Assembly (NCBI RefSeq): GCF_041260155.1
Contig: NC_091948.1
Span: forward strand, 5,593,501-5,657,500
Source of the DNA: Ptychodera flava
Taxonomy: Eukaryota; Hemichordata; Enteropneusta; Ptychoderidae
DNA: 64,000 nucleotides
Reading direction: 5' to 3'
The number at the start of each line of letters is the position of its first letter. The first letter of the stretch is position 1. Both the position numbers and the translations under genes were made by a program. The notes beneath the pieces are model-generated. The model was not told the origin of the DNA, searched no databases, and saw nothing but the letters and a program-made list of their open reading frames with translations. Shown here in pieces: positions 28,722 through 64,000 of the stretch.

Positions 28722-28786
28722 ATAGTGGCTACTACTGGTGCGAGTACACGAGCGGTTGACTGCACTGGGCATACGATGTGTGGAAC

Positions 28787-34827: not shown

Positions 34828-36728
34828 TTAGTAAGCTTGGAAGGATAGATAGCATGGGAAAATAGATGGCAGATATAGCTGCTATCTATCCTCTCATTTG
34901 CATATCAATAGAAACACGCAATTTATGTATGCAAATGAGAAATGTCAGGATAGATGGTAGCAGGATAGATAGCAGAACACCGGATCGCCAACGCTGCGCC
35001 TGGGGGCTTATGGCCCTGACCAAAATCAGGTGCCGCCATCTGGTAAATTCGGTCAATTTTACAAAATTAACACAAAACATGTTTTGAAGGCTGATACTGA
35101 TATACTAATTTTACATATTTTTTACCTTGACCTAAAAATTTGGAGGAAAAGTACAGCTGTTCGTAACTGCCCTCCCACTGGCATAGCGGAAAATATTTGA
35201 TGCAGATCCGTAGCCCTGCTACACCCTGGCCCTGCCCCTCCCCTGCCACGGCCCAAACTTACTTCCGAGTCCTCGGCGAGAAGCAACATTTCACCGATGC
35301 TTTTTTGAAAGGAAGATGTTATTCGCACAGCAGTGGTGCGGATAAGGAATCTAAACTTTTTATTCGCATCGCAGAGTGTGTCTAGCTTTGATGTACCAAA
35401 GCTTGGCAATCGCTATTAATCCAGGTCCCCTAGTTTCCTCTTTTCCCGTTCCATAGTACGTATTTGAGACGTAAAACTGCTTGTAGGTGGAATTTGACAC
35501 GCATTTGTACCATTGTTTCAGTTGTTTACTTCATGTATCCGAATGGTTTCGGGAGGCAAGCTCAATATGTCCAGTCCATAACCTAGAGTAACCGGGGCCA
35601 AAATTATTTTTGTCAGCGTCGCTGCTAGCTGTGGGTCCATATAGCTGTGGTGTTTCCTGAGACTGGATTCCCGCCTTTTACGGGTTGGTTTTGACTTTTA
35701 CGATTTTAAACCCACCACCGGACCCACAGTTAAGGGCACATATCCTCCAAAAAAGAGATATGCCGTTATTTTACGTTGACATTACCAACAATGCGTTCCA
35801 CTATTTATTTATCTATTGCATAATTTATTTCATATTTTGCTTTCTTCTCATTTCGTCATTGACGTGTTTGGGTACGGTCCAGTTCAGTCGTGATAATACT
35901 ATATAACAAACAAATCATATTCTATTTTTCAGAAGGAGCTGCATGTAGAACCCTGATGAATGAAATAGTTCCTGATCATGTTGTGTAAGAGCTTTCTGTG
36001 CTAGCAAAATGATCGAGAAGCGAAGCGTCAGATCTAAAATTGCTGAAGTGCCTTGACATGATGGGTTGAAAGGTGAAATTTGTCACCGATATCCAATTAA
36101 ACTAATTGTTATGTAAATTATACTGTTTCAGTTATTCCGGGGGAGAATACTGCAGTGATTGGGGAAGGGTCAAGCTTTAGAATGCCGGACGAGGGGGAGG
36201 GTCACATTTTACATTACACATTACACCACCCTGTAATTACTGAATGCTCCCTTATTGAGATTGAGACTCAGTTTTCAACAATAAGCTTAATGCTTGACAC
36301 TACACACTTTCGACATGAGTTTTCAGACGCAACGAAAATACTGGGAAGCACATACAAAGCTACGACATATTTCTCTATAGCAAATCTCTATGTAGTATGC
36401 ACTGAGAGTTGCCCTGGAGTTGTCTATTGATCTCATCTGAACAGATTGTATTCATGTTAGGATTCGTATATAGAGGAGGGGACATCATCTAATTATTTTA
36501 AAACCTTACAGAAACAGACATGACGACGAGAAAATATCATGCTACCAAGACAACGAAGACGCAACGAAACTGTGTCGACAACTCTTATTGGTCTTTAACA
36601 ATACACGACCATTCCACGAAAAACGGATATCTCACACTGTTTCCTTTGCCTTGTTCATATACACACCAGATTTAGGAGTTGGTAAAGGCGAATTCGGAAG
36701 AGAATATTACTGAATGAAGACAAACAGC
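34828..36728. other. Intergenic DNA upstream of the CUB-LDLa gene
   Basis: Holds a fold-back repeat at 34860-34980 (GATAGCTGCTATCTATCCTC and CTCATTTGCATA facing TATGCAAATGAG and GGATAGATAGCAG), an inverted pair CTGTGGGTCC/GGACCCACAG at 35630-35722, and at 36150-36258 a relic of the element-D type (GGGTCACATTTTACATT ... TACTGAATGCTCCCTTA). The promoter and 5' untranslated part of the next gene should be near 36500-36728; no TATA box stands out. Confidence 0.45.
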
Positions 36729-40688: not shown

Positions 40689-40984
40689 TCTGTAGCAACC
40701 TGTTACACGACCCAATAGTTGTACTGGAGGAAAGAAATCAGATGAACCAGTTTCCGAACCCTAATACCGTGCGAAGTGCTTTCACTGCCTATATCGGAGG
40801 AGAACGATCCGACAGAGAGCCACCGCCGTATATAGCACATACCAAAGACAAGGGCTCCGCCATCGACAAGGGAAATGGTGATCTAGAAGGACCAGAGGGG
40901 TCAGATTGGAAGAATACGACGTCATTCCATCCGAGATTGTTGCCGCCAATCGATACCATGGCTTCCTTACCACATGTAGAGTAA
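40553..40984 (+). other. Alternative-frame tail of the CUB-LDLa protein
   Basis: From 40553 a second frame stays open for 143 codons to TAA... (stop at 40982-40984, TAG/TAA context) and includes EERNQMNQFPNPNTVRSAFT, SDREPPPYIAHTKDKG (a PPPY motif) and LLPPIDTMASLPHVE. Its composition looks more like a receptor tail than the other frame does. A frame change between 40553 and 40688 (indel in this assembly, or a small unrecognised intron) would make a protein of about 380 residues. No convincing splice pair of the right length was found. Confidence 0.45.
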
Positions 40985-41679: not shown

Positions 41680-42882
41680 AACATTATCTTTCTGGATTCT
41701 GCAAGAAGAGTGCCTTCCATTTATGTCCTCGACATTTAAAGTTTTATCATGTCTAGGAACTAGACCATCACTTAAACTCAGATTTTTTTTCATGAAAATA
41801 ATTAGAACTCAATTAAGGGTATCCCTTTTTTACATTCTTTTCCTGAAAATATATCATTTTATCAAATTATTTTCTTTCCAGTTTGTGTTTCTCTGAAATT
41901 TCATGATTTCTGTTTTCCAAAATTTAGGTTGGAATATTTCCAAAGAAAAGCCTGATTCCCTCTTGGTTTTCGTAAAAGGGAAACTCTTTTCTGTTCTGTT
42001 GAAGAGTAAATTTAAAGCAAAAGTGGAAAAACAATAAACGTACTATATACGTGTCTTTGTCTTCTGAAACATTCAGTCATGCTAACAAGCTCTTAGCTTT
42101 CAACGTTTTAGAATACTTTTTATCTTCAAGCCACACAACAAAACATTAGTAATGAAGGTTGTATTCTAATGTCCTCATGAATATTCTTTAAAAATCAGGA
42201 AAAAAATGATAAATCGGTCATACAGACATAAAATGATACTTACTTTCATCACATAAACTGGTCCGGATCGGCACGCACATATGTGACGTGAGGCCAAACA
42301 CACTTAGTTGCGTTTACTGTGCGCATGTTTTAATTATCCACGGCCCCTAATAGAATGTGATGTGATAAATTTAGACATGGAAGGCATGTCTAATGAAATT
42401 TCATGTTGCCAAAGCTTTAGCGATTCCCTATAACCGAAAGTGGTGTCAGGACTCTACAGACCCAATGGTCTGCAAGCAGCATAATGCAGCGCTGTAAATC
42501 CGTCGATCGATCATCTTATGAGTAACGTTACGGTTCCGACTCAATGTGGACGTCGAACCTGGCCATAAACCTGGAAGTTACCCCTAAACATAAGTTCAAT
42601 TGAATAAATATATACCGTATGATCTTCAGATAAAGACGGCTCGAAGCATCAAGCCATTCTTAGAAAGACGATAAATTTCCTTCATCACCTAAAAAGATTC
42701 CGTAAATTCCGAATCGGATCTACAGCGAAGCGTAAGGAAGACATCAATTGTAGCCTGAACTCTGCAGCGCCGTGGATGTGTTATCGAAAGTCGACAACAA
42801 AACAGAGTTTCCGCCGAGTGACGAAAGTTTAAAGGTATCTGACGAGCTCGATATGTGTCACTGCAAACATTAAAGTCCGTAA
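41680..42882. other. Intergenic DNA, no feature recognised
   Basis: AT-rich to 42250, then mixed composition. Neither strand shows a domain-like frame or repeat. Confidence 0.4.
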
Positions 42883-43694
42883 GGGAGCCGTCATTATTTA
42901 CGGCCGGGGGGGGGGAGGTCGGAGGAATTTCATCGAAAACTCAAAAATTCCGAGTAACCCCCGCAAACCATGATGAATTTGAGTAACCCACCTCTCTAAC
43001 ACAGACATTTTGACTGACCCCCCCATTTTGAAAAGTTAAATTTAAATACATGTATTTGTATAATTTACAAAAATACAGCAATAGTAAAGACCATTCAAAT
43101 CCTCTTGCACCCTGCTAGATTATCCTCCGTTATATCTCATGACGGTTGAAAAAGATGAAACCAACAAAATGAAATTCAAAGTCACAACAAAATATAGATA
43201 TAAAACGTCACATTATACACATCATCCAACCATATAGTATATTATTTAATATGGATGGGTACCATGACAAGGTCTTCACTAGCATATCTGACGGGGTAGA
43301 GTTTGAAAGTAGAAGGGAGAACATGCGGGAGCCTGAGGGGGAAAGTGTCAGAGGGGTTGTACCCTCTCTTGCCTGGAAAATTTTCAGAAATTGAAGTGTG
43401 CAATGGTGCAGTATGGTGCAATCTAAGAGGTGTTTTCAATGTGTATTTTTACTGAGTAAAACTGTCAGAATACCCCAAGGGGGAAAGGGGTTCCCCCTCT
43501 CGCATCGAAAATGTTTAGAAATTGGTTTGTGAAATGGTGCAATCTGAGAGGTGTTTCAATGCATTTCGCACCAAAACATGAGTAACCCCCTTCTTTCTCT
43601 CAACATTTTGTACCCCCTTGTAGCTTTCAATTTTTTGAGTGACCCCCGGCCCTCACATTCCTCCGACCCCCAGGCCGTAAATAATGATGACTTC
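42883..43694. mobile_element. G-run inverted-repeat element C (Harbinger-like)
   Basis: Left end GGGAGCCGTCATTATTTACG then GCCGGGGGGGGGGAGGTCGGAGGAAT; right end ATTCCTCCGACCCCCAGGCC then GTAAATAATGATGACTTC. TAA stands outside on the left (42880-42882) and TTA on the right. Runs of ACCCCC/GGGGG recur near both ends. No coding capacity. Confidence 0.72.
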
Positions 43695-43768
43695 TTAAGA
43701 TGTAAAAATTGACGACCGGGATCGCGACTTGCGAGTTTACACCAGCCGAGACCGGTGACAGCAGCAGA

Positions 43769-46046: not shown

Positions 46047-46113
46047 ATGAGCTTCGTAATCTTCATTTGTTTGTTCGGAGTCTTCGGTCCGTTAGTAACA
46101 AGTAATGCCATCG
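46047..46113 (+). CDS. Mosaic gene exon 1 (signal peptide)
   Basis: ATG in AAAGATGA, then MSFVIFICLFGVFGPLVTSN and AI before donor GTAAGT. Typical signal peptide with cleavage after the TSN-A region. Two overlapping donors are possible (GTAAGT at 46114, GTAACG at 46118); only the second gives the phase needed by the next exon. Confidence 0.65.
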
Positions 46114-49100
46114 GTAAGTAACGTCATAATGAAACTTGGACTTTGTCTCTATTACGCCCTCGAACGTTTGAGAAACAACATGTTCCCTGCCAACCATATG
46201 AAGATACAGGCTTTCCGTCGATAGTCAATGCATATACCACTTTGACTGCAAACATGTTAAACATTTACTGATAATTCAAAAATACAACCTTGGGGAACTA
46301 CTCCGAAAAGGAAGCACGCCGGTTTTCGGCGATTCAGTGTCATGAAAACTAAGTTAAAAAAGTTTATGCCATACCTGAAAGTAGCATGTAAGACATCTTT
46401 TGAAAATGGAAGTTGCTCCCACATTTGTCCTTCATAATCAAGTGTGAAAATCCAGGGTTATAAATATTTACAATGATCTAATATTTACAGATAAAATACT
46501 ATAAAAATGCCAGTCATTATTCGTATGTTGGAAAAAAAGACATTTTTGACAAGAAAAGCCAATGAAATTATGATAACCGTATCTTCAAGATAACTTCATA
46601 TAAATTAATAGCTGCAGACCTGAGAAGAATGATAAGACTATCAAAGTCCGAACATCTGTCAACAACGGACACCTTACTAAAATTACTTGCCTGGGATGGG
46701 GACGAGACGATATGGTGTTCTGAGATCTGCTAACTATTGCTAGCCCAGAACATGTCTGACGATTTAGGAAGGAAATCAACGAAATTAAGTGCTGGAAACG
46801 CTTTCACAGATGTTTCGCTTCCTTCATCGCCCGCTTTTCTTGTCACCTGACAGGCAATTTTCTTGTGAAAGGCGAAGAACCTCGATACTGGCAAAGCACA
46901 ACTTCTCTGAGGAGATGTATGTGGGCGGAGGCTATGACTGTGAGAAAGATGGACGTTTCAAACCCTTGCAATGCTACAATAACGGTATCTGTGGATGCGT
47001 TAACGCTTAGGGAGCATTCGTTATTTACGGGGAGGGGGGGGTCGGTGGAAATCAGGGGGGGGGTTGACTTTTACAAAACCGCTTTTCAGGGGGGGTCAAA
47101 TTTTACAATCAATGATTGAAGGGGGGGGGTCAAATTTTACAAAGGTTTGTGTTGAGTTATGGAAAACAAAATTGACTTTGGAATTTCACCGAAATGTTGC
47201 TTGTGTAACCGATGTTTCGAGACGGCAGAATAATAACCGACCGAAGCTCAGCCAAATTTATTTCTCTAGCAGGGCCAACAAGTCCGAGACTGGCATTAAC
47301 CTCTCTAGAGCAGCAACAGAGCATGTAGCCCTGAGTACAGGTCTGTGTGTTCCTGGCGTATACGGCCTCCACCACGCTGCCCTGCAACGGTCTGTGGAGA
47401 TAACTGGGGTCTCTGCAGCGAGATTCAAAATGGGGATCGCCATGGGTAAACAACTTGTCGAGTATGTTATGTTTCAGAAAATGAGCGGTTTTGGACGTTA
47501 GGAGAAGTCAATCGCATCTTTTCTGGGATTGGTTAGGAGGTAAAGGTAGGCAGGGAAAGGATTTTGCCCCAATAGAGCAGAATTTCGGCCAAAAAGACCG
47601 TTTAGTCTTCATTGCGGTCCAGATCCAGGCCGCAGAGACCTCAAGTCTGTTCAAAGACCATTGCAGGGCTGTGGTAGAGGCCATATAATTGCTGGAACAC
47701 ACGTGCACACACCTGTACGCAGGGCTACACAGCCATGAGGGCACACAGTCCATGTAGCCGACAATGAGATGCAAATGATATGCGGTCAAGGTCTCCTCAA
47801 CTAACTTTCAGCTGGTTCTTCACTTTCTACAAAGGCACAGACTTATTCTACCTGCAACTTAAAACTGATAGTGATTTGTAGCTCATTCTTTACTATTTTT
47901 CATAGTTTTTGATAGCCGGTAACACACACTTCGTGTTCGTGTCGGCTACATGGACGATCTGCCGAAATGAGGAACCAACACACAGTCATATAATGTAACA
48001 AACAACTTCTGTATATATTGTGTCAAATATCGGGGTCTACATACAAAATAGTAAAACCGTACCCAAAACTATAAATATTACTCCATGGTAACAGTAACCG
48101 TACTGATCGACCTCCCGACGGCAGGAGTCGAACACACTTTCAGAACAAAACTCTGTTCAAACCCTTTCTAAATGCTTAACAATTTCTATGGAAAACTTAA
48201 CGGTACCGCAGAGGTACCTCAGACTTGACGACGCGGCTGGGAAACACAAATAGTTCACACGCGACTTTAACTAATGTTCGATGATGAGCACAATTTAAGT
48301 CCCGTGTAATGTCTGCACATGAAAGTCGGCGACAACACACGCAATTCACTGCTAAGCAGCGTCCAGTTCAGCTACCACGGGAGCAGCCATCTTACTAATA
48401 TTCTTAGATCTTTTGTTTACTTCCGGTCGGGACATGCCGAACTAATCTGAAGTCTTACTCTGCTAACTCCGCGCATCGACAAAAGTTCAGTGGAACAATC
48501 ATAAATAATGTTCTCATGACAATCTCAGACATCTGACTGAACTCATAAACGGAATAAAGTTCACAGTTAACACACAATTTGCTGCAGAAAGATCAGCTTT
48601 CAACTTGTGGTGATATTATCATCTTAGCAGTGCGTATATTGCAAATATACGGCACGGCTTTCACTTGTGTGAGCAATGTTCGTTCCATCGACTAAAGTAA
48701 AGTAGAGCATGGCGTAGGGTTTAAATAAACTGTCCGATCCGCACAAAATTCGATCTCTGCCACTCACCGGTTTCTTTACATATCTGCTGACTTGAGTAAG
48801 ACTCAAAATAGAGAAATATCTGACTTAAAAAGCACACGCTGACACTCAAACCTTCCAGTGCCAGTGCAGCATGTAACGTAAAAACTCTCTGGAAAGTTCC
48901 CGTCTTGGACTCCCTAGGTATACAGTGATAACACACAAGAACTCCCAGGCAAAATAGAAAATACACAGGTCCTCCATACATAATCTATGAGAAGCTATGA
49001 ATAATTTCTTTTAAATACAAAACTAGCTAAATCTGTGTATTTATAGATTCTTGATTATTGATATTAATGTACTTGATAAGACTAGGGTAGTTATCAGTGC

Positions 49101-52100
49101 ATGTGTGAGCAAGAAATATGATTTTGGAATTTCACCGAATTGTTAATTCACTATCTTGTCAGAGGAAACTATGAATAATTTTTTTCCATAACATAACTAG
49201 TTAAATCTGTGTATTTATGTACGCTTGATTATTGATATTAATTTACTTGATTAGACTAGGGTGGTAACAAGTGGATGTTTGTGCAAGAAATTTGATTTTG
49301 GAATGTCACCGAAATGTTGATTCACTATCTTGTATATATGGAAACTATGAATAATTTTTTTCCAATATAAAACTAGGTAAATCTGTGTATTTATGTACTC
49401 TTGATTATTGATATTAGTGTGCTTGATTAGACTACAGCGATTACAAGTTCATGTGTGTGCAAAAATTTGATTTTGGCATTTCACCAAAAATGTTGATTCT
49501 CTAGTATGTGAGGAAACTTTTTCAGCCCGGGGCCACAGGGTGCGAAGGGTTAATGAATCAAATCTGATGAATTTTTTTTTTTGGGGGGGGGGGGTCACAT
49601 TTTACAATTGATGAATTGAGGGGGGGTCAAATTTTAGAAATTTGATTTGGAGGGGGGGTCGCTTTTACGTTTCATTTGTCGCTCAAATTCCACCGCCCCC
49701 CCCTCCCCGTAAATAACGAATGCTCCCTTATGGCAACTTTATTTCAAGAACGGCAACTCCTCCGAATAGAGATCCACCTGTTTGTAAAGGTAAAAGGTTT
49801 ACTTTTCATCAAAGTCTCTCAATCTCTGTCTCTGTCTGTCTATCTCTGTCTCTCCCCTCTCTGTATGTCTCTGTCTGTTTGTCTGTCTCCCCTCTGTTTG
49901 TCTGTCGGTCTCTCTCTGTCTGTCTGTCTCCCCTCTGTCTGTCTGTCTGTCTGTCTGTCTCGCTCTCTCTCTCAACATGTCTGTCACTAGTTTTATCCAT
50001 TGTATGTTGATTTCTGACACCGAAATTACATTACCGCTACGTTCATGAGTTACAAATAGTAACCATTATATAAGGGAAAGGAATTGACCATTATTTCTTG
50101 TTTAGAGGGGGCAGAAAAAAGAAATACACACAAGATTTAAACATTTGTCTTCGAAGTCGACAGTGCATGTATATACGTTTTCCCCTAAAAATTCTGCCCT
50201 TTTTTAGAATCTAGTCTGTTGAATAACTTCTTACCAAAATAGCAAGGGAGTCATAAATTCTGCTCCCATCGTTTGTCATTAGTTCACCCTCTCGAGATAT
50301 AATAGTATTTCCCTTAACCCTTGACTCGTCGGAAAATTAGGTCTGAAGCCCGGTCATTGTCCACTGAGTGAAATCACCAGTTCCTGTGATATGGTATGTA
50401 ACAGCGACGCTGAGTGTCCTACGAATTTGAAGTGTTGTGACACGGACTGCGGGAAAACATGTGTCGAACCAAAGCAAGGCAAGTGTTACCTTTCTCTACG
50501 ACTTATTATAACAACATTAATAAGAATAATAATAATGGGTTCTTATATAGCGCACATATCCACAGGTACATGTGCTCAAGGCGCTTTACAATTATTATTA
50601 ACACTGGTCACTGGACCTAATATGATACCACTCAACTTCACATGTGCAGCCAATAAGCGCAGCAGAGCTAAACGCACACATTACAACCACTGTCCTACAA
50701 GGTACCCATCACTCCTGGGTTGGTAGAAGCAATGAGGAATAAAGAGCCTTGCTCAAGGACACAACACCATGGCCATGTCGGGGCTCGAACTCACCATCCC
50801 GTGATCGTGAGTCCACTGCTCTAGCCACTGGCCTATCATTGCCTCCTCCATCGTGTACAAGATGTTACATTCAGATAACTGTACAAAGTGTTACAGTGTT
50901 CGAAAAAAGTGTTCGTGGGAATTTGAGAAGCTGTCAAATGTCCGGGGACAGGGCACTCAAACCCCCGATTTGGGGACAGGTATGAGTGTTCAATGAGGTC
51001 AAAACCGCTGTACATATGAGTATACCCTTGCTGTTCGCATGCGCCTCGCGAGCGTTGAACCAACATGTCTTGGCTTTAGAGGTAACGCTTGTCCGTGACA
51101 ACAAACTAAGATAGTGTTTGTTCTTTAACAACTTTATAGTAGCGATGGTGTCCATTTTAATATGTACCAGTATCGATGTCGGGCACGAACTAGAATGCAG
51201 AGTATGTGTAGTCCTGTCCAAAGACTGTACAAGATATGGATAAGGTCAAGAGTACTACACAAAGTTAAGACCATACAAAATATGGACAAAGAAACAAAGT
51301 CACTCTTTTTTACCTCTTTGTCATATCAAGAAAATTTGGAATATTTACATGAACTCAGACAGGGTATAAAATGACCTTGGTACATAACTGGAAAGGTGTC
51401 AAAAATTACCCCTTTGCTCAAGACGCATGATTTGATCTGTGACCTCCACACAAAATGAACTTCCCTGTTCCGACTTGCTTTCCTATGACAAATAAACATT
51501 GCCAAAATATTAGGAAAACTGCTAAGGCACCGCCAATTAATATTTGATCACAAAAGCTTGCATGAGGTCCAAACTTTTGTGACAGTGTATGTTCTGCCAT
51601 GCATGGTGGAAGTTGTATAACTTGATTTTTTTGGTACAGAAGGTAAAAAATGTTTTCAGTGAATGTTTAATCTTGTCTGGCTGCAAGCAGAGTTAAAGAA
51701 GTGAGTGCACTGTGGACCAGAATTTTAGCGTGTTTCAAGAAGCGAAACAAAAAAAACTACTTTCCTATAAAAAAAATCATGAAATAAGGTAAAAAAAGAG
51801 CGATTTGTCCCTTTAACAGCCAAGTAGGCGAATGGCGCACATCATAGACGCGAAGGAGCGCTATTAAACACTATAAGTGCCTTGGTTGAAAGCTAATACA
51901 GCACTGACAAGGCGATATGTAAAGCCGAGGTGTATGTGCGTAATAAATCGATCTGCTTCTCCTGAATTTCATGTTATGTTACACCAGTTAATGAATGTTT
52001 GACGTTTTGAACTCTTCAAAAACTATCTGTATTTGGTTGACGTAAGGCCGCATTCACAAACACCTGGGGGTGGGGGGGCCGCAGGAGATTCTAAAAAATG

Positions 52101-55100
52101 TTCGCAGATTTTTTCAAATGCCCCTTACAAACTCACAATGCGTTCAGGTCCCCCCTTCTGACTTGCTTTAATTTTGAAGTTCCCATCCCTAGGCCCTAAA
52201 AGATGGGTAAAATGTGGCCGATATGGTGCTTTGTCCAAAAATATTAAATCATAATACATTGGAGTCTATTGGGCAAGCTATTAACATTTTCTCCATTAAA
52301 TACAAGCTATATTTACACATTTATATGTGTTTGATAATTCATGTAAACGTACCTTGCTTGAAGTGGCACGTAAAAAGTGCATGTTTGTACAATAAAATTT
52401 GCTTTTTGGATTTCATCGATAATGTTGATTCACCATACATGGAAGTCTATGAGAAAATTATAAACAATATTTTTCAAATATAAAACTAGTAATATCTGTG
52501 CATTTGCAGACGTTTAGTAATCGATATAAATGTACTTGATTAGCATACGATGGTTACAAATGAACATGAATGTGTAAAAGAAATATAATTTTGGAATTTC
52601 ACCGAAAATGTTGAGTTGTGAAGTCTACGACAAAACTATGAATAACTTTTTCCAATGTAAAACTTACTGTTCATGTGCATATATAGACGTTGGATGATTG
52701 ACATAAATGTACTTGATTAGCATAGGGGGTTACAAGTGCATATATGCACATTTTGAATTTTGCCGAAAATTTGATCCAATGTATATGGGAGTCTATGAGA
52801 AAACTATGAATATCTCTTTTACAATACTTAACTAACTAAATCTGTGCTTTTATAAGTGTTTGACAGTTGATACAAGTGTCCTTGATTCAAATAGGGTTTT
52901 TGAAAGTTCTGATGTGGACAACAAATATGATATAATTGGAATTTCTCATAAAAATTATTATTTCACTTCCAGGGCTCGAAATTAACTTTTTCCCAACTGG
53001 GCTACCATTTTCTGAAGTTGGTAGCCCAGTGGCAATGGCTGGTAGCCCATGCATTTTGTAGTTTTGGGATATTTTTTCCTTAACCAGGCAAGAAAAGACC
53101 TATTTTTCAAGATTCTGCCCATGAAGTGAATTTCTATTCATCTGATGTGAATACTTGCACACCTTTAATACCCGAAGGAAACAGTAATAAGTTATGATTG
53201 GACAGCTGTGACACTCAAAAGTTTGGTGACCTATTGACATCCCGTTTCATACTCAGAGTTGTATGCAAATTTTGATAGTCGCCATGACAACGACTTTTTC
53301 TCATCCGATGAGACAGCAGGGCTAAAAATAGAGCATGGGCTTTCTATGCAGGGGAGGAGACAATAATTTCCGTGTAACTGTGATTGATACATTATGATCT
53401 AAAATATAACATTTTTGTAACATTTTATTAGTACTCAACATACACTATCAGAGAGTGTTGTAAGGTATAGTACTCTTAGTACAAAGTGGGAAAATTACAT
53501 AATTACATAACTGAATTGCATCAGTGAATGCACTAAATGCAACAATGAACATACATGAGTAAATAACTTTGCAAAGTATCTAACTAATCTAATATAGCGA
53601 AATGCATTTCCATCGGCCATCATTTCCTGTGCCTGTCAACGAAGTACATCAGTTCACAGGTTCAGATACTGAAACTTTGCAATTTTCATAACAAAGTTAT
53701 AGTCTGGACTTTCTGTGTCGAGATAGCTGGCTAGTTGGGTATGACTGCATTCAGCTCGTCCCAGTGAAGGACATCGCAAGCCAAGTTCTAGTTCTGACTG
53801 AACTTCATGTCCTAGGCTTTGGTAGTCCGTGTGGGCTACCATTTCATGAATTTTGGTAGCCCCAGGGAAAAGTTGGTAGTCTGTGGACGTGGGACTACCG
53901 CTAATTTCGATCCCTGACTTCTCATGGTAGTCTACATGTAAAGTATTATACATTTTCCTTGACAAAACCTGCTATATCTGTAATATACATGTATATATTT
54001 AAGTGTTGTTACATACTGACTTTTTGGCTGAAATAAGTTTCTCAATACACGATAACAGTGCTCTCTCCACAATTTCAAGCCAAACTATAAATGAAGGTAA
54101 ACATTACAGCTATTGTCCTTTTTGCGATCACATAAGAAAGGTTTGGAAACAGAATGTCAGGAAAACTGGACATATTTGTATTTGTATAAAAGGGACATTA
54201 GGTGTACCCTGGGCAATCAAGTATGTTTTGTTCTGTGTATCGACTGCAGTTTCTTGTTCTACTTCCAAAGCATGCTAGAATAACAAAATTCAGTTTGGCA
54301 AATATATGCAAGTGTAAAGACCATAATCATTGTTATAGATGACAAATTGATTCTCTTCGGAACTTGAATTCAATTTTAAACAGTAACAATACTGACTGTA
54401 AAGTTAAGTGTTAAAGGATAGAACACCAATTAAACGCCTTTTGTAACACTTTTTGAACGCGTCTAGACGTTCAGAAATTTAACACTACGTGTTCAACCAA
54501 TGTTCAATTTTTAACACACGTGTGCAGATTTTGAACACTTCGTGTTCATCAGACATTATATTGAACACCATGTGTTCATATCTGAACACACGTTGCACAT
54601 GAAATGCGTTCAAAAAATTGAACGCATTTACGCGTTCAAAGGGCTGTAACACTTTTTGAACGCATGGACGCCGTTCAACGATAAGTGTGTTAAAGGTTAG
54701 AACACATGATATGCACTTGTTGAACACCTTTAATTTTGGGCGTTCATGGGGTGTTCAAGCCTGGAAATAACAAAACAGACCACTTATATTCAGTAAAATT
54801 ATTTTATTTAAAATACACAAAATCCCTTTGTAAAATACAATTATTTAGTGTCAATTGGGCACATAAACACCGTTGGTGTTTTCCTCAGACAAACTTTACA
54901 AAGTGGCCATATGGCCACTTTGTAAAGTTTGTCAGAGGAAAACACCAACGCTAATTAACACCTTCCTATCAAAACATAAACAAAAGAAAATCCCCATAAA
55001 CACTGTAGATCGTTTTCAAACAATATGAACAAAGTAGTGACAAAACAGGTTTTACTTATAATTGTGGATTACGTTATATATTGATACTTGCAAAAACGTA

Positions 55101-58100
55101 CGAAAACATCTGTTTGAAAAAGCTAAAAATTTGGCTTACTTGAATATATCACATTTTGATAATTCCTTATGTCTTAAAAATGTCTGAAATGTCTTTAATG
55201 TCTCAAAAATACAATTTTGTGTATTTCATCATAACTTGTACATAATATGATTAGGAAAATCCCGGAAACCTGTACTCCAAATATTAAATGAATCGTACTG
55301 GCCGTTTTGAAGAAAACGCTTGGGATGTAAACATTTGAGGATGATGCCACACATTTACCTATGATATAAGGTCTACGTCCTTAACAGCAAAGCTAAAATC
55401 AGTAACAAACCGAGAACAAAGACGTCTTGATCTAAAATATAAAATAATCAAAGATTTGGTAGCAGGCTATGATCAATTAAATGTTACTGGCATAAGCTTT
55501 CAAAGACGTGAAGTCTCCTTCATCAGATGCCAGGGTGCAATGAAGATTTGCAGCAGACAGCGACAGAAAATTCAGAGTGGAAATTTCAGAAAATTCCGAA
55601 ATTTAGAGTGTAATTTTTTTTACTGTGAATTTTCTGTGGCTTTCTGCTTTAATTCTTCATTCCACCATTGCATCTGATAAGGGTGACTACAAGTATTTGA
55701 AAGCTTATTCTCCAGTAACATTTAGTTAATCATAGCGTTCTGGACATAGCTCAGATAAATTCAGAACAGAAATACAGAAACTTATCAATTCAGTTACTAA
55801 CCCTCGAAAGTTCAAATCTACATCAGAGATGAGCTGAGGTTCTCAAGCTTGTTTCCAGACAGCTATCTGTACACTCATATTCTTCAATTTCTGTACCAAT
55901 AGCTTCTGTAATAACTCTTCGATTTCACGTTCATCCAACTTTTCACATCCTGAAAATAATGCAACAATAGATAATATGGCGACATGAGACTTCAAATGAA
56001 AGACAATTTGGCCTTATTAGGTTAAGGAAAAGGGGTGACTTTTGTATACAGTGCCTCTTTTCGTCAATGTTACAAAATATTGGCTTCTTCGTGTCATCAA
56101 CTGATGAAAAGTAAAAGCAAAGCCAACTCTCATATGCTAAAACAATATTCTTCGATGTTTAACTAAAGTTTTAAATTTACATGCGATTGTGGTTACTAAA
56201 AGACATGTTTTAACTGTGATTACGCAGCGGTAATGTGGCATATCGATCGCGCTCGGGTCAAGGGTCATCGCTCCAGTGATGACCCTTGACCCGAGTGCGA
56301 TCGATACCCCATGGCCCAAAACACTGCTGCGTATTCACAGCTAGTGTATGGTCCACCAGCCACTGAAAGAAATAAAGGTTTCTTCACGTAGTTAAGCTTT
56401 TTCAAAGTACAATACAATTAGTTCCGAAGGTTAATAATACAGATGCTTCAAAATCCAATACCTTTTAATATTTTGGAGAGAAAACTTACCCTTTCTGGTC
56501 TTGCTTTCGCACGATCACGACTTCAGCGTGCGCTTACAAGAAAAATGTCGCAACTTCCGTTTTGATGCATCATGGGATAAGAAAGGCACCGAACTGAACA
56601 CCAAGTGTTAAGAAGTAGAACACCTCTTGCACGCCGATGTTAAAATTTAAACGTTCATGGTGATTTTTTTATTTTATTTTCAATATTTCAAAATTTCAAC
56701 CCGTAATAAACGTGTAAAATTATTTTTATACTTCCTTTTTAGAAAAAACATGCTTTCAGCAATTGTAGACCGGAAATATTTCCACTTATTGTGAAATTCG
56801 TTACACCGAAATCCGTGCACGTATGCCGGACAGCGAGGCAGTAGTAAAGTTAATATAGCCATTGTAAAGTAAAAAACACAAAAGATTGTTAATTGTTTCA
56901 CAGTATTGTAAAATTTCTGTGATGCTGAGTTTTTGAACACTTGAAGGAGATAGTTGTTAACACTACGTGTTCAGGTTTAGAACATCATTGTTAATAATAT
57001 GAACACTAGTGTTAACAATATGAACACTAGCCGTTCAAATTTGAACACCGACATGTACATTTTGAACGCGTAAAGACGCGTCTAGCGTCCGGTATTTTTA
57101 CAGTATGACTGTTCACATATGGCTGTGCTAGATTTTTTATCACACTTCATGGAGTAGAACAAGAAACTGGAGTGGATACACAAAACAAAACCACCCAATA
57201 AATTAGCCAAACGTTATAGTTTAAATTGACAACAATACACATATTTCATATCAATCAGAGACAGGTTTGTTTCGAGTCCCCCTCTTTAAGTCCCAAATCC
57301 TTTCAGGTGCTCCCAAACACACCTTTGATATTTTCAAGCGCCCTCGGTCAATTCACACACACCCTCCCGAGGTGTTTGTGAATGCAGCCTCATCCTAGTA
57401 TATTATTCAATATGCATACACTAATTAAATACAGCGAAATATTTCAGATGATTTCAATAACTTCATTACATAAAAAACATAAACAATTATGAAGACGGAT
57501 GAGAAGATGGTAATAGCACCTCATCACATTAAAACACGAAATGATTTCCGATTGCGAATATAAAGTAGCAGGGCATCATCAGGAGCAAATTATTGTAACA
57601 ATTAACTGCAAATTTATTTCTTTGGCAAACTGTTAGTACAATCAATCATGGCAACTAATCGTTTCAAAAACAGAACGTGAAACTGCGAGATCATAATCAC
57701 TATCTCCAGTAAAAATACTTAAAATTTCCCACTTGCTTAATTCTCGTAAAGACAAGGCTTGTTCGCTCAAACAGACTTTATTGGAACACTAGCAGCGCGT
57801 CCGGTCAGCGCAAAAATCGAAACTTCAACCCGCCCAGCATAGTGTGCCTGTTCAGAAATTGTAGTTCAGTGACACATAAGTTCAATCAAATTGCTGCGTG
57901 AAGCATTCAACGATTTGATGCATTTTTGGTAAAACTGGAAAATCTCTTGATATCCCCGTGTTGAAATAATGTGTTGTAAGGTCAAATGTCAAATAGCGTC
58001 CAATAACACCTGAAATTATTGTACTCCGTGTCAAAGTTATTGAAATCCGCACTATAAGATAATACCAGGTATAACCATTGCACACAACGTATTGTGCACG

Positions 58101-61100
58101 ATTTTGCAATGAATGAATTCTAACCCAGACTTCAATTCATATTTCAACGATAAAATTAGACTATTTACAGCCCTTATCATGTCGACAAGATGAACATTTT
58201 GTATTAAGCCTGACTTTTGAAGTATAACAATTGAATGGGATTTTTAACATGAGCTGGAAAATACTTCAAAAGTTGCAGATAGCAATGGACCTTTAAAAGC
58301 TCAAGTTCTCTAGTGTCCGCCCATTTGAGATATTTGTACAATCTTGATGAACACATGTTACGTTCACCAAGTTGCCTCAATAATTAAAAGTTACCGACGG
58401 TAGAACCTCATTATTATGAAATCATCTATGTCCCAGCCGTTTCACATAAGTTTTGCTAGGCAGAGGTGTGTATTATGCAACACGGGGAGCCATTTTTAGC
58501 TCACGTGTTCACACACGTGAGCTAATGTCATAGCAATGTCTGTCTGTCTTACTGTCCGTGTGTGTGTGTCTGTTTACACAATAACTCAAAAACGCCTAAA
58601 CAAATTCATGTCAGATTTGGAAGACTGGTACCATATGCTTCTTGCAAGAACCAATTAGATTTTGGTTAGTGTGGCTTGCATATTAATGAAATTATAACAT
58701 ATCAATTTTTTCATATAATTGTTTCCTATGGAGACAGTAATGACAGTGTCGACATATAACAAGAAATACTGCACAAAGTTTCATGAAACTTTTCACAGAT
58801 TGCAATCTTAGAACATTATGATGATTCTGTGAGTGTCATGTCAATTATATGCTCATTTGCATATTTAATTAACTTTTGTAATTAGTGACATAACTCTGAA
58901 ATTCTTGCACCAAATTTAATGATACATGCAACAAATATAGATCCGATATATATCTAATTGTACTTAGAAGCATTTGGCAGTGTCAAGTTAATAAATAGCT
59001 CATTCGCATATTTTATGAAGTTTTGTAATTAGCCGTTTAACTTCGAAATAACTGCACCAAGTTTCATGAAATGAGCTGCAGATACTGATCCGATAGATAG
59101 CTATCTGTGTTGTAAAGCATTTAGTAGTGCGAAGTTAATTAAGGGTTCATTTACATATTTAAGGAACTTTGTAATAAGGGATATAACTCCGAAATTATGG
59201 CACCAAATTTGGTGAAACGTGCTACAGATACTGATCTGATAAATATCTAATTGTGCTACGAAACATTGAGCAGTGTCAAGTTAATTAAGGGTTCATTTGC
59301 ATATTTAATCAATTTTGTGATTGGTGATATTACTTCAAAATTACAGCATTAAATTTGATAAAACGTGCTACATATGTTGATCTGATAGATATCTAATTGT
59401 CCAATGAAGCATTGATCAGTGTCAAATTAATAAACAGCTCATTTGCATATTAAATATGTTTTGTAATTAGTGATTTAACTCTGAGAGTACAGTGCGAAAG
59501 TTGATGAAACCTGCTACATATAATGATATAACAGATATATAATTATTCTGTGAAGCGTACTACTATTAATGAGCCTGTTGTAAAACACGTGAGCACATTC
59601 AGTTCACATTTGGTAAAATATTACGTTTGACTAGCAAATTGTATAGATATTTCCGTAAATATACAATGTTCAAAAAAAAAGTCTGTAAACCTTTCAGTTA
59701 ACCCTTTCCGATGGCAACTACGTGTTTTAGCACTACTGCATGTTGAACAGTTGTGTTATTTTGTTACAATACTCATTATCTGAATATACTTGGTTTGATA
59801 AATTAAGTATTGGCGTTCCTATGAAACTTACATTTACGAAATGAGGAACATCTTAGATGAAATAACAAATTTATGCGTGTTTCGATTTCTTTGATATTAC
59901 TGCCCGCATTATCAATTTTTATTTTCCAGAATGCTATCCAAAAGAACACAGCTGCGCAGATAAACTGACATGCGTTCTCGAATATTTCATCTGTGACGGC
60001 ATACCAGATTGCCCGGATGGAGACGACGAATGGAAGTGCAGTAAGACCTCTCTTGCATGTTCCTCACCTTTGGGTCAATTTTTACAGAAAAGATCTTGCC
60101 ATATGCATATAAACACTTATATTGATTTCCACACCAAGACTTACGAATGTAACAGTTTTAACGACTTATTTCGACTTTTATTGGAGATGTACACCTTATT
60201 TGTTTGTAACGCAGTTTTGTTGACAGTATACTCTGACTTCGTTAAAGGTGGAGGGAACTTCATCTAAAATTTATACCATATTCATGTGTGTATTTTTCCC
60301 AGCCAACGGAGATATTAATCGAAAAAGCTATTCCGGAAGCAATTTTTGAGGCAGGGGAAATTTTAATTTTGCTAGGACAGGGGACATATTTTTAGGTGGC
60401 AGGGGAGGAAATTTTAGTTTTTTATTCGGGCAGGGCAGATATTGGTTTATTGTCCTGGGGACAGGGCTCGTCGAAAAACGAGGAGAGGGGAATTAAGCTA
60501 CTTTTAAAACGGGGACAGGGGAATTTCAGCCATGGTGTTTCCAGGGATGGGGACACAGTGCAAGTACTTATACCTTTTAAAGGTTACCCAGACTACTTAG
60601 CCTATCGATTGACCCCACATCTCGCTCTACGTACGCGAGACGGAAACCAAATACAAGGCCACTGCAGTATGTGTCTGCATGGGAATGTTAATTTTCAGGG
60701 GAATTTTTTTCAGGGCAGGGGAAAATCGACAGTTTTTTTTTCATCACAGGGTAGGGTAGCTTCATGTCTGCAGGGGAAATGGAATGGCAAAATTTTGAGG
60801 GAATTTTTTCCACGGCAGGGGAAATCGGCATGTTTTTTCGCCACAGGGCAGGGGAGTTTCAAACATTCACAGTGGGGAGGGGAAACAGGCAAAAATATGT
60901 GGGGAGCGGGTAAAAATGAAGTTTGAGTGCGGCAGGGTAAGTCGAAAAATTTTCAATGGGAGGGCAAATTATGAACAGCTAATTGATTACCCTCTTGAAT
61001 TAAAATTAGTAAGTTCACATTACTTGTCCTGTACAATATATCTTATCATAGTAAGGACCTCTTTAAGAATGCATTGTTCGTTGGCTGCACCTGTAAATTT

Positions 61101-63134
61101 TAGTAAGTGAATAAATGAAAGTATTTAAAACGACAAACTCACGCACAACACAGGCAGAGACACGAACAACAGATAGACAAACACAAACAAAAACAGATAC
61201 AGACACACATACATATCTATTCATATCGACATATCTCAACAAACATGTATATCGATATCTGTACAAACAGACACATACATACATACACACACTGATCTTT
61301 AAGAATATTTTACACTTGCACGACAAGTTATGATAATGTTATCAGCAATGTAACGATTTGTCACCACTACATTCCCGTTTTTGTAGCTACTGAACGTTTT
61401 GATTGTCCATTTGGAAGGACGATTTCTATGGCATACCGCTGTGACGATTTCCCACAATGTGTTGATGGTAGTGATGAGGAAGGGTGCGATGAAATCGCAT
61501 GTAAGTTCTTGTAAATGGGAAAACGTTAATTATGAGAATTAGCACAGATAAATTGGCTTTTTGGTATGTAGCTTAACTTGACCAAAACGCCTGCAATTGT
61601 ACTGTGATAGAATTGTTTACACGCAACACTCTATGTACATTGTTGTCAGTTCATATGGGTACCAAATACTGGAAGGATATACCAATCCATTGATTAATTT
61701 ATATCACAGAAATATTAAACGCAACAAAAGAGAATTGTTGTTATCTCAGAGTGTATCTTGTTATATTTTTTGTGACCTTCCAGTCTTGGAACTTTCTTGA
61801 TTTGGCCAGATGAAGAAATTATGAGTTGATCGCCATGAATTATTAATTCTGTTACAGCGAAGCAGCGAAATTGCACAATTTACACGCACTACACATGCCA
61901 CTTTTTACACATGCAAGACACCAGCCACCTCGTTATGAATTCTCCGGAAAAAGCTGAGCTTTAAACCCAATAGGTGTATATTTTTCAAAGCTTACTTTTT
62001 GCTTAAGGATAATCTGACAGCAAATTTGAATAATATCTGAAATTCGCTTTTTACCGTCCCCTGTACAAGCGCTGTGACGTCTCAGAATGAATAAAAACCA
62101 ACGATTGAAAAGATTGTGAACTCTAAAGGATTATATATCTCTCTGAGAGATGTGTCAGAGCCTAAAGACAGCAGACATTCTTTCCGTGATTGATACGTCA
62201 GCTTTTGATCACACAAGTTACAACGACAAACACTGCATGCAGACTTTTAATAAAGGAAGGGAAACCTCATTTATGTCAGAGGTTATTCAGATCCTTATGG
62301 AAATAATCGTTACAAAATGCAAATCACAGAATTTGCATATACCTAGGCTTCCAGAATATATATACTTTTATAGGGTTCCGAGCTCAGTGTTTTGCAATGA
62401 CTTCATTGTTTGGAAGGGTCTATTAGTAGTCCACCTGGATGCTTGAAACAAAATTAATGTCAGCAACACATACCATTTTATTCTTGTCTTCGTTATTTTG
62501 TCTATATTTTCGTGTAAAAGTTATCAAATTTTAGTATTTTAGATCATGCGTACTGTGGAAGAATTTTGCGTCACTCATATGCTTCCTTTATACTTGGTTT
62601 TTTCCATCAGTTGAATGTGAAACGTATGATGATGAAGGGACAATTCCACGGCGTTGGGTCTGCGATGGCGCCGAGGACTGTAGAGATGGAAGTGATGAGA
62701 AAGACTGCCGTATGTATTATACTCCAGAATTTCACTATAGCCATGTTTTGCTTATTCCTTTTTCATATCTATTAGTAAATAGAAATAGTTAATATAACGT
62801 GCCTGCAGGTTAGAACTCGTATGGCACAGAGGAATATCAGGGGAAAACGGTCAAAGACAATACTTAATATTGATATTGATAATTAATATTTAACAATACT
62901 TTTCAAAGTGGCAGTGAATTAAAATGTAAGTCTAACTTAGACAAGATAGAAACACCACTGCATGTCGGCGTATGCTATATGGTTCGACAAATGTGAAACG
63001 ACAAAATAAACATCTACTTTCAGCATGCGAAGAGGAGCATGGACGATTTTTGTGTCAGGACGGAAAATGCATCAGTGAATACTCACTTTGCGATGGCTAT
63101 ATTGATTGTGCAGATGAGAGTGACGAAACCTGTA
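46047..63134 (+). CDS. Mosaic secreted/surface protein: thyroglobulin-1, WAP and LDLa domains (disrupted, right end open)
   Basis: Exons: 46047-46113 (signal peptide), 46854-47009 continued at 49731-49789 (thyroglobulin type-1, split by a transposon), 50341-50478 (WAP), then four LDLa exons 59930-60040, 61387-61500, 62611-62709, 63024-63134. From the thyroglobulin-1 exon end onward every junction has one base left and two bases taken, so all modules are freely joinable. Thyroglobulin-1 and WAP domains often inhibit proteases; LDLa modules bind calcium and ligands (family knowledge). The signal exon leaves one base while the thyroglobulin-1 exon takes one, so either the donor is four bases further on (AATCGGTAA then GTAACG) or a small exon was missed. 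Whether the LDLa exons, 9.4 kb beyond the WAP exon, belong to the same transcript is inferred from phase and strand. The gene runs past the right edge. Confidence 0.55.
46114..46853. other. Intron between signal and thyroglobulin-1 exons
   Basis: 740 bases of AT-rich DNA. Searched for a small exon of length 1 modulo 3 to reconcile phases; none with convincing borders was found. Confidence 0.4.
46854..47009 (+). CDS. Thyroglobulin type-1 exon, 5' part, interrupted by element D
   Basis: Acceptor TCACCTGACAG. Encodes QFSCERRRTSILAKHNFSEE, a YVGGGYDCEKDGRFKPLQCY core and NNGICGCVNA: five of the six thyroglobulin-1 cysteines, with the family CWCV reading CGCV. The frame hits TAG at 47008-47010, formed by the junction with the transposon. 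Confidence 0.88.
47010..49727. mobile_element. G-run inverted-repeat element D inserted in a coding exon (Harbinger-like)
   Basis: Ends GGGAGCATTCGTTATTTACG then GGGAGGGGGGGG and the reverse complement on the right, about 44 bases each with few mismatches. TTA duplicated at 47007-47009 and 49728-49730. Both ends carry subterminal units of the form GGGGGGGTCAAATTTTACAA. The core has no transposase frame; at 48985-49510 it holds three tandem units of about 174 bases that also occur in element F. The high similarity of the ends suggests a fairly recent insertion. Confidence 0.9.
48985..49510. repeat. 174-base tandem repeat within element D
   Basis: AACTATGAATAATTTTTTTC recurs at about 48993, 49166 and 49341, each followed by AAAACTAG..AAATCTGTGT, TTGATTATTGATATTAAT and TTTTGGAATTTCACCGAA. 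Confidence 0.85.
49731..49789 (+). CDS. Thyroglobulin type-1 exon, 3' part after element D
   Basis: Immediately after the second TTA of the duplication the original frame resumes as YGNFISRTATPPNRDPPVCK, giving the Gly and the sixth cysteine expected of the domain, then donor GTAAAA. Counting a single TTA, the two pieces form one exon of 215 bases. Confidence 0.85.
49808..49978. repeat. TCTG/TCTC-rich microsatellite
   Basis: Imperfect TCTGTCTG and CTCTCTCT blocks with CCCCTCTGT interruptions, starting 19 bases after the donor of the thyroglobulin-1 exon. Long frames here (SLSVCLS, TDRQTDRQ) are repeat artefacts. Confidence 0.95.
50341..50478 (+). CDS. WAP four-disulfide domain exon
   Basis: Acceptor GGAAAATTAG. 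Encodes LKPGHCPLSEITSSCDMVCN, SDAECPTNLKCCDTDC and GKTCVEPKQ: eight cysteines in WAP spacing with the KPG.CP start. The donor reads AAG then GCAAGT, a GC-AG intron type; no GT donor in frame is near. Confidence 0.88.
50505..50851 (-). mobile_element. tRNA-derived SINE
   Basis: On the minus strand from 50851: GGAGGCAATGATAGGCCAG, then TGGCTAGAGCAGTGGACT (A-box like), GAGTTCGAGCCCC (B-box like), then the body GTGTCCTTGAGCAAGGCTCT, GGGTTGGTAG..., GCGCTTGAGCACATGTACC-like sequence and a tail of TTATTATTATTC. The two RNA polymerase III boxes and the simple-repeat tail identify a SINE; it sits 27 bases after the WAP exon. Confidence 0.8.
50852..52045. other. Intron sequence between WAP exon and element F
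   Basis: No exon or repeat recognised; mixed composition with several short shadow frames. Confidence 0.4.
52240..52960. repeat. 174-base tandem repeat within element F
   Basis: About four diverged units; TCTATGAGAAAACTATGAAT-like anchors recur near 52447, 52622 and 52793, with AAAACTAGTAATATCTGTGC, TGATTAGCATA..GGTTACAA and TTTTGGAATTTCACCGAA between them, as in element D. Confidence 0.8.
52970..53916. mobile_element. CAGGG...CCCTG element nested in F (hAT-like)
   Basis: Left CAGGGCTCGAAATTAAC, right GCTAATTTCGATCCCTG; ACTTC directly outside both ends (52965-52969, 53917-53921). GGTAGCCC repeats are clustered inside both ends. Ends resemble hAT elements, but only five duplicated bases are seen instead of eight. 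Confidence 0.65.
54871..54950. repeat. 80-base near-perfect palindrome
   Basis: CGTTGGTGTTTTCCTCAGAC runs into ACTTTACAAAGTGGCCATAT and back, closing AACACCAACG; centre GCCATATGGC at 54905-54914. Confidence 0.9.
56213..56340. repeat. 128-base fold-back repeat
   Basis: TGTGATTACGCAGC faces GCTGCGTATTCACA; inner stem ATCGATCGC..CTCGGGTCAAGG and GGTCATC with its reverse, loop CGCTCCAGT. Confidence 0.85.
57390..58489. other. Intron sequence, no feature recognised
   Basis: AT-rich; no LDLa- or WAP-like exon found. Confidence 0.4.
58490..59640. repeat. Tandem repeat, about 146-base unit, with palindromic head
   Basis: Head: TAGCTCACGTGTTCACACAC then GTGAGCTA, then GTCTGTCTGTC. Body: TTTTGTAATTAG-type anchors near 58873, 59021, 59165, 59312 and 59458, each followed by ATAACTC..AAATT and GCACCAA, and preceded by AGCTCATTTGCATATT. 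Tail: ACACGTGAGCACATTCAG. It ends 290 bases before LDLa exon 1. Confidence 0.8.
59930..60040 (+). CDS. LDLa exon 1 of the mosaic gene
   Basis: Acceptor TATTTTCCAG, donor GTAAGA. CYPKEHSCADKLTCVLEYFI then CDGIPDCPDGDDEWKC: six cysteines and acidic calcium ligands. Confidence 0.9.
60340..60960 (+). repeat. GCAGGGGAA-type degenerate repeat
   Basis: Units such as GGCAGGGGAAATTTT, GACAGGGGACATATTTTT and GGCAGGGGAAATCGGCATG recur every 25-60 bases. The 176-codon open frame over it reads repeated GRGKS..FF segments and is explained by the repeat. Confidence 0.65.
61110..61300. repeat. CA/ACAGA-rich low-complexity stretch
   Basis: ACACAAACAAAAACAGATAC, ACATACATACATACACAC and similar, 90 bases ahead of LDLa exon 2. 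Confidence 0.7.
61387..61500 (+). CDS. LDLa exon 2, lacking cysteines 1 and 3
   Basis: Acceptor TTTTTGTAG, donor GTAAGT. TERFDCPFGRTISMAYRCDD then FPQCVDGSDEEGC. The cysteines at positions 1 and 3, which pair with each other in LDLa modules, are both missing; 2, 4, 5 and 6 and the calcium site are kept. Confidence 0.87.
61501..62610. other. Intron between LDLa exons 2 and 3
   Basis: AT-rich, nothing recognised. Confidence 0.4.
62611..62709 (+). CDS. LDLa exon 3, lacking cysteines 2 and 3
   Basis: Acceptor TTTCCATCAG, donor GTATGT. ECETYDDEGTIPRRWVCDGA then EDCRDGSDEKDC. Only four cysteines; by alignment the second and third are Asp and Thr. Confidence 0.85.
63024..63134 (+). CDS. LDLa exon 4
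   Basis: Acceptor CTACTTTCAG, donor GTAGGT. CEEEHGRFLCQDGKCISEYS then LCDGYIDCADESDETC: canonical six cysteines and DESDE calcium motif. Confidence 0.9.
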
Positions 63135-63984
63135 GTAGGTGACATCATGCACGTTTAGTACCTCATAAAAACTCGCCTCTTTTTTTTTGCTCCAATTAGT
63201 TCCACAACTGTCAACTTGTCATTATGTTTTCACGGGGTTAGCCACTGATGAGGATGGAATGAGTAATCATCCGAGGTGTAGGTCTTCAAATCTATAAATT
63301 AAACATATATTTCATAAAGGATGGAATGTTTCCACTAACTTTTACGTTTTGCGAAAAAGTCTGAGTCAGTGAAACGCAAGTCTGTACACAAATTGCAGTC
63401 ACAGCTATCAACAACTGACGGTAGATAAAGGATGTTAAACATTTGAAGTCATTTTTGAGACGTTATGCAATTAATGACTAATTAATAGTGTTCGACAGGC
63501 TTAGCAACAGTACCCTCAACCTTGAACTATGACTTCAATATTTCCTCCACCTATTGTTGTCAGTGTGGCAATAAGAGTTGAATGAAATATCAGATCCTTA
63601 GTGTATCACTTACCATTTTTAGGATGCATATTTCATACATTTACAGTTGTTAATCTTAAAAGCTCATTAGATGCAGCTTTTGCATATTGTACTTGTGATT
63701 GTACTGTTTGTGAAATCATATCAATGTACCTAATTTTCAACCTGTTTACACGGCCCTTATGTTTATAACGTCCAATGCATTGGTTGACAACCAAATCTTG
63801 ACCGTACTAAATTCGTTCATGATCAATAACACAGGATCGTGTGCGCAGTGTGTTGTATTGCAAAGGCTAATGCTGTGTATGTAACCCAGGGCAGGCTTTA
63901 GGGAAAAGGTAGAAAACACGTTAACAAGAGTCACAAATATTGTCCGTCTATGATGTTACTGTGGCTATCATTCGTTGATAAGAA
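63135..63984. other. Sequence after LDLa exon 4, no exon recognised
   Basis: Presumed intron; the gene should continue to the right because exon 4 ends with an intron donor. Confidence 0.4.
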
Positions 63985-64000
63985 TAGCTGCAGTACAGTA
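63985..64000. repeat. Start of a repeat cut by the window edge
   Basis: TAGCTGCAGTACAGTA is identical to 27879-27894, where it enters the 30-base palindrome. Sixteen bases only. Confidence 0.4.

What the first reader, a model, noticed from the sequence alone, without database searches (positions are those of the whole stretch)
46854..49789. Transposon inserted in the coding exon of a thyroglobulin type-1 domain
The frame for a thyroglobulin-1 domain runs to its fifth cysteine and then meets TAG exactly at the junction with an element whose ends are inverted repeats (GGGAGCATTCG...CGAATGCTCCC). After the second copy of the TTA duplication the same frame resumes with the Gly and sixth Cys of the domain and a proper donor. 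This is a precise, reversible-looking gene knock-out in the sequenced haplotype: either a recent polymorphic insertion or an early pseudogene. The other exons of the gene are intact, favouring a recent event.
Basis: partly seen in the sequence, partly recalled or inferred. Interest (0 to 1): 0.88.

Follow-up and report, generated by a model that had tools for sequence, protein, structure and literature searches.

The report
Transposon in a twice-broken exon
In an acorn worm, a jumping-gene fragment sits inside one exon of a gene for a small multi-domain protein, but that exon also carries a second, separate frame-breaking change, so the gene (or at least that domain) looks lost rather than merely switched off by the insertion.

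Summary
A 2718-bp element (47010-49727) without a detectable transposase, with near-perfect inverted ends and a TTA duplication, interrupts a thyroglobulin type-1 (TG1) exon. Joining the flanks reopens the TG1 frame to a donor site. The window is taken to be from the acorn worm Ptychodera flava: the neighbouring gene's protein matches at 100% over 245 aa. A related element about 3.3 kb upstream has a TAA duplication, so the target looks like TWA, as in PIF/Harbinger.

The interpretation needs correcting. Two of three acorn-worm homologues show that the TG1 exon is entered in another frame. The exon starts in that frame (GNFLVKGEEPRY) and slips to the TG1 frame at about 46886-46891, 120 bp before the transposon. 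Without the element the message would still stop early. This is not a single reversible knock-out but an exon with two lesions. The remaining TG1 sequence is not decayed and the six other coding exons are open, so the loss looks recent. Skipping the exon would leave an open 215-aa WAP-LDLa4 protein. A young unprocessed pseudogene is most likely; a TG1-less gene is the rival. Ordinary in kind.

The parts
46047..46113 (+). signal-peptide-like first coding exon, MSFVIFICLFGVFGPLVTSNAI(G), donor phase 1
   Evidence: aligned to P0001 MNYLVLVGLFGALGPLALANAIG in the frame-aware alignment; donor score 8.8
46854..47009 (+). left part of the TG1 exon, including the first TTA copy
   Evidence: acceptor score 10.3; Pfam PF00086 4e-7
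46886..46891 (+). site of the frame change inside the TG1 exon (bases missing relative to P0001/P0002); upstream of the element
   Evidence: 2 of 3 homologues place one frameshift at 46889 with an 11- and 8-residue gap beside it; P0001 score 477 with, 418 without a frameshift allowed; P0002 387 and 368
47007..47009 (+). target-site duplication TTA, left copy
47010..49727 (.). DNA transposon without detectable transposase, 2718 bp
   Evidence: TIRs; no transposase domain in three + frames or three - frames at E up to 0.5
47010..47050 (+). left terminal inverted repeat
   Evidence: 40 of 41 aligned columns identical to the right end
49688..49727 (-). right terminal inverted repeat
47057..47161 (+). 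subterminal direct repeats of the type GGGGGGGTCAAATTTTACAA, left
   Evidence: family D3
49588..49668 (+). subterminal direct repeats, right, same orientation as the left ones
   Evidence: family D3
48986..49503 (+). three tandem copies of a 174-nt unit inside the element
49728..49730 (+). target-site duplication TTA, right copy
49731..49789 (+). right part of the TG1 exon, up to Cys6, donor phase 1
   Evidence: donor score 7.7
50341..50478 (+). WAP-domain exon, 138 nt, phase 1-1; GC donor (AAG|GCAAGT)
   Evidence: Pfam WAP 1.6e-9
59930..60040 (+). LDL-receptor class A exon 1, 111 nt
   Evidence: Pfam PF00057 8.3e-6
61387..61500 (+). LDL-receptor class A exon 2, 114 nt
   Evidence: exon read by eye; open in the spliced reading; four LDLa stretches in the product
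62611..62709 (+). LDL-receptor class A exon 3, 99 nt
63024..63142 (+). LDL-receptor class A exon 4 and stop codon TGA

Best explanation
In Ptychodera flava, a cut-and-paste DNA transposon that carries no transposase (PIF/Harbinger-like by its TWA target and end structure) inserted into the TG1 exon of a secreted TG1-WAP-LDLa4 gene, whose nearest listed paralogues lie on a different, 53-Mb contig. The same exon also suffered a frame-breaking loss of bases about 120 bp upstream. As the sequence stands, a message with the whole 2.9-kb exon would be read out of frame from the signal peptide and stop after 110 aa inside the element. The gene is most likely a young unprocessed pseudogene in this haplotype. 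Shown: the insertion with its TSD and ends, the frame change against two homologues, the open other exons. Inferred: species, superfamily, loss of function, recency. The order of the two lesions is unknown.
For: TIR/TSD and restored TG1 frame on joining. Species by a 100% match over 245 aa of the upstream gene's protein, P0004 Ptychodera flava. Frame change at 46889 found with both Ptychodera paralogues P0001 and P0002. Readings: 110 aa as sequenced, 95 aa without the element, 215 aa with the exon skipped. TG1 Cys2-Cys6 identity to the three homologues 64-70%, against 55-61% among the homologues, and 19 of 20 of their invariant residues kept: no sign of decay. In a simple neutral simulation an open frame with at most one of the 18 kept residues hit survives in 88% of runs at 1% divergence and 5% at 10%. 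No protein near 100% to this gene among 24 hits of 72 candidates (lengths 139-443 aa) or 3 hits of 7 candidates (97-310 aa), although the neighbour gene is present.
Against: All six other coding exons are open in frame, which a functional TG1-less gene would also show. The missing protein could also be a gene model longer than 443 aa or shorter than 97 aa, or one not held in the database.
Confidence: 0.6

Rival explanations
1. The gene lives on without its TG1 domain. The exon was symmetric (phase 1-1) in the ancestor, so splicing from the signal-peptide exon straight to the WAP exon keeps the frame and yields a 215-aa secreted WAP-LDLa4 protein; the 2.9-kb disrupted exon is simply skipped.
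For: The skipped reading is fully open over 215 aa with WAP 2.1e-10 and four LDLa stretches 3.9e-27. Both lesions lie in the TG1 exon and the other exons are open. An internal exon of 2936 nt is hard to define (general splicing knowledge, recalled).
Against: The 215-aa product lies within the length ranges and shares its WAP and LDLa sequence with the queries, yet nothing near 100% was listed. The WAP exon has a poorly scoring acceptor (-1.2) and a GC donor. No transcript evidence was available.
Confidence: 0.2
2. One reading: one recent, perhaps polymorphic insertion knocks out an otherwise sound gene; the apparent frame change is a one-base sequencing or assembly error, or some other splicing supplies the frame.
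For: With one missing base at 46889-46891 the exon would keep a Cys1, and the stretch from Cys1 to the residue before Cys2 would be 17 residues, against 28, 25 and 20 in P0001, P0002 and P0003 (counted by hand sequences). The ends are nearly identical.
Against: The exon's first residues match homologues in the other frame (7 of 12 with P0001, GEEPRY shared with P0002), so choosing another upstream exon does not repair it; no acceptor downstream of the frame change up to 46900 has the needed phase. The frame change comes with an 8-11 residue gap, which fits a larger deletion better than a one-base error. The published assembly was corrected with short reads.
Confidence: 0.17
3. The element works as an intron (introner-like) and is spliced out precisely.
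For: Insertion within an exon with the TG1 frame kept on both sides.
Against: By simple consensus scores there is no donor at the left edge (best in 46951-47080: 46985, 4.1, inside the exon) and no acceptor at the right edge; the nearest is 49749 (3.4), and the higher ones at 49790 (4.8) and 49815 (5.2) lie at or beyond the exon's end. Pairing 46985 with 49749 removes 43 coding nt and leaves the frame broken (lengths counted by hand).
Confidence: 0.03

Closest known systems
PIF/Harbinger DNA transposons (non-autonomous members)
   Same: 3-bp TWA target-site duplication (TTA here; TAA at the related copy 42883-43695), TIR under 60 bp beginning with G, as described for 214 families in PMC4482050 (section 5 read)
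   Different: no transposase or Myb/SANT ORF, so membership by protein is untestable; subterminal G-run direct repeats and an internal 174-nt array were not looked for in known families
NuwaII (PHIS superfamily)
   Same: 3-bp TNA duplication (PMC4482050 passages)
   Different: NuwaII prefers C|TNA|G; here the sites are C|TTA|T and G|TAA|G
Ptychodera flava 'whey acidic protein-like' (P0001) and 'sortilin-related receptor-like' (P0002); Saccoglossus LOC144355152 (P0003)
   Same: TG1, WAP and LDLa domains in the same order, 56, 48 and 63% identity
   Different: as listed proteins their TG1 domains read in one frame; P0001/P0002 are listed with a contig of 53.1 Mb, the window's neighbour gene P0004 with one of 37.3 Mb

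Membership tests
PIF/Harbinger | TWA target-site duplication | tested here: met
   TTA/TTA at this element; TAA/TAA at 42880-42882 and 43696-43698 (placed by eye, its outermost right bases are diverged); TTA beside a lone right end at 36252-36254 whose left end was not found
PIF/Harbinger | TIR mostly shorter than 60 bp, first base usually A or G | tested here: met
   about 41 bp, GGGAGC...; criterion from PMC4482050 section 5
PIF/Harbinger | DDE transposase and Myb/SANT protein | tested here: not met
   no such Pfam domain in six frames of the element; expected of a non-autonomous copy, so it is called PIF/Harbinger-like only
Thyroglobulin type-1 domain | Cys2-Cys6 motif with QC and CxCV | tested here: met
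   Pfam PF00086 3e-9 for the joined stretch from 46891 to Cys6
Thyroglobulin type-1 domain | Cys1 and the N-terminal part in the same frame | tested here: not met
   frame change at 46889; Cys1 of homologues (RYC, KYC) absent as the sequence stands
unprocessed pseudogene | introns kept, frame-breaking lesions | tested here: met
unprocessed pseudogene | no functional product | not testable with these tools
   no transcripts available

The most novel reading that the evidence does not exclude
A transposon plus a frameshift have in effect deleted one domain from a living gene: the disrupted, once symmetric exon is skipped whole and the gene now makes a TG1-less WAP-LDLa4 protein, caught while the dead exon is still fresh.
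Probability: 0.2. Interest if true: 0.45.

Novelty: new member of a known kind. Interest (0 to 1): 0.22.

Why it matters
It is a clean example of gene or exon loss in a hemichordate with an identifiable transposon, and it shows that a tidy 'one insertion, one knock-out' reading can miss a second lesion that only homologues reveal. If the exon-skipping reading held, it would be a natural test of domain loss by exon skipping.

Tried and rejected
Rejected: the element as an intron (no fitting splice sites at its edges). All splice scores come from a matrix typed from recalled consensus values, so they are rough. Rejected: typical Kolobok or piggyBac, which make TTAA duplications (passages of PMC9587614); the right flank here is TTAT. 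The same passages report 3-4 bp duplications for some KolobokP families and RR..YY termini for Kolobok, which the GG..CC ends fit, so that relationship is unlikely but not excluded. Not settled: other superfamilies with 3-bp duplications such as Zator (recalled); the passages of PMC10294476 gave no criterion to test. The 145-aa open frame in the element (47064-47498) gave only a sub-threshold Pfam match (Ig_TPPC8_C, E=0.0032, 17.7 bits against a cut-off of 27), and the minus strand one at E=0.15; both taken as chance. Led nowhere: Rfam (0 matches), tRNA scan (0), plasmid collection (no match), own-genome search (none held). The search for a left end of the element whose right end is at 36251, in 26001-36200 with up to 5 errors, found none. 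Literature: listings only; no title on this insertion was seen in them, which is no proof of absence.

Full report
What is there. The exon at 46854-49789 is interrupted at 47010 by an element of 2718 bp. Its ends are inverted repeats, perfect over 32 bp and identical at 40 of 41 columns in a gapped alignment; the 21-mer end with up to 3 mismatches had no match in 100 shuffles of the window. TTA flanks it on both sides. With one TTA and the element left out, the TG1 frame runs on to the sixth cysteine and a donor of score 7.7. Pfam gives Thyroglobulin_1 at 2.7e-10 for the joined reading and 3e-9 for the part from 46891 on; the best sequence relatives with solved structures are saxiphilins, through their TG1 repeats.

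The organism. A protein read by eye from the upstream gene (CUB, LDLa and transmembrane exons between 37.9 and 40.7 kb; signal part not included) matches P0004, 'membrane frizzled-related protein-like [Ptychodera flava]' (285 aa), at 100% over 100% of the 245 aa given. The window is therefore taken to be from this acorn worm.

The gene. Reading exons by eye and by Pfam on three + frames of 34001-60500 and of 60001-64000 gives: signal-peptide-like exon 46047-46113, TG1 exon, WAP exon 50341-50478, LDLa exons 59930-60040, 61387-61500, 62611-62709, and 63024 to a TGA ending at 63142. A protein search found 3 proteins with E up to 0.001 among 7 candidates, all from acorn worms and all with TG1, WAP and LDLa: P0001 and P0002 of P. 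flava and P0003 (partial) of Saccoglossus.

The second lesion. The homologues settle the frame in which the TG1 exon is entered. From the signal exon (phase 1) the exon begins GNFLVKGEEPRY, matching GNVVVSDEELRY of P0001 (7 of 12) and sharing GEEPRY with P0002; the TG1 motif proper (AKHNFSEEMYVGGGYDCEKDG...) is in another frame. A frame-aware alignment that allowed shifts anywhere over signal, TG1 (element left out) and WAP exons placed exactly one, at 46889, for P0001 and for P0002, next to gaps of 11 and 8 residues where the homologues have their first cysteine. For P0001 the score falls from 477 to 418 and for P0002 from 387 to 368 if shifts are forbidden. P0003 aligned only from just before Cys2 and is silent on the point. 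A single deletion (by hand count 34 nt against P0001, 25 against P0002) is the simplest account; one missing base with a naturally shorter loop is the alternative, and only that alternative could well be a base-level assembly error. The published P. flava assembly used PacBio reads, Purge Haplotigs, HiC and Pilon with Illumina reads (section 16 of PMC11175523 read). That the window comes from that assembly is inferred from the species only.

Consequences. As sequenced, translation from the signal exon gives 110 aa and stops at 47117-47119 inside the element; the TAG at the junction is in a frame that is not used. Without the element the message would still stop after 95 aa, at the start of the WAP exon. 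With the TG1 exon skipped the frame is open for 215 aa, signal-WAP-LDLa4. The TG1 exon without the element is 215 nt, not a multiple of 3, while the WAP exon and the first three LDLa exons are 138, 111, 114 and 99 nt, all multiples of 3.

Age. The TG1 Cys2-Cys6 stretch (44 columns) is 66, 70 and 64% identical to P0001, P0002 and P0003, which among themselves are 57, 61 and 55% identical; it keeps 19 of the 20 residues invariant in the three. For the WAP exon the window's identities are 78, 52 and 67%. A neutral simulation on 59 codons keeps an open frame with at most one of 18 kept residues hit in 88% of runs at 1% divergence, 29% at 5% and 5% at 10%. The loss of constraint on this exon is therefore young on the scale of the gene family; the near-identical TIRs agree but are short. 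No absolute date follows.

The element. No transposase domain was seen in six frames. A second element at 42883-43695 has related ends and TAA on both sides (boundaries placed by eye), and a lone related right end at 36251 is followed by TTA. A TWA target and a G-starting TIR under 60 bp are published marks of PIF/Harbinger (PMC4482050 section 5); without a transposase the element is only PIF/Harbinger-like.

Verdict. The best account is a young unprocessed pseudogene, or a gene losing its TG1 exon, in P. flava. In favour of a plain pseudogene, protein searches that should have listed the 215-aa product, or a TG1-bearing product of up to 443 aa, listed no close match (24 hits of 72 candidates, best P0002 57% over 70% of the query and P0001 64% over 58%; 3 hits of 7 candidates). 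Against it, every other exon is still open. Splice scores of the other exons are mixed: most lie between 4 and 12, the lowest are the WAP acceptor (-1.2) and the donor of LDLa exon 3 (2.3), and the WAP donor is of the GC type.

Noticed in passing
42883-43695: A second, 813-bp element with related ends (left GGGAGCCGTCATTATTTACGG) and a TAA duplication at 42880-42882 / 43696-43698.
   Followed up: partly
36252-36254 and upstream: A lone right end (..GAATGCTCCC) followed by TTA; no left end found. A similar start (GGGAGCCGTAATTTTTTATGG) lies near 45004.
   Followed up: partly
52045-57390: An about 5.3-kb stretch in the WAP-LDLa intron bounded by 25-bp inverted arms (AGGCCGCATTCACAAACACC..., 92%), holding a further pair of 39-bp arms (54225-57191) and an array (52275-52967) 66-81% like the 174-nt repeats of the main element.
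   Followed up: partly
37600-40984: Upstream gene with CUB, LDLa and transmembrane exons, identical to P. flava P0004 over the 245 aa tested.
   Followed up: yes
50479-50484: The WAP exon ends at a GC-type donor (AAG|GCAAGT).
   Followed up: no
58851-59527: Tandem array of a 146-bp unit, 4.6 copies, in the intron before the first LDLa exon.
   Followed up: no
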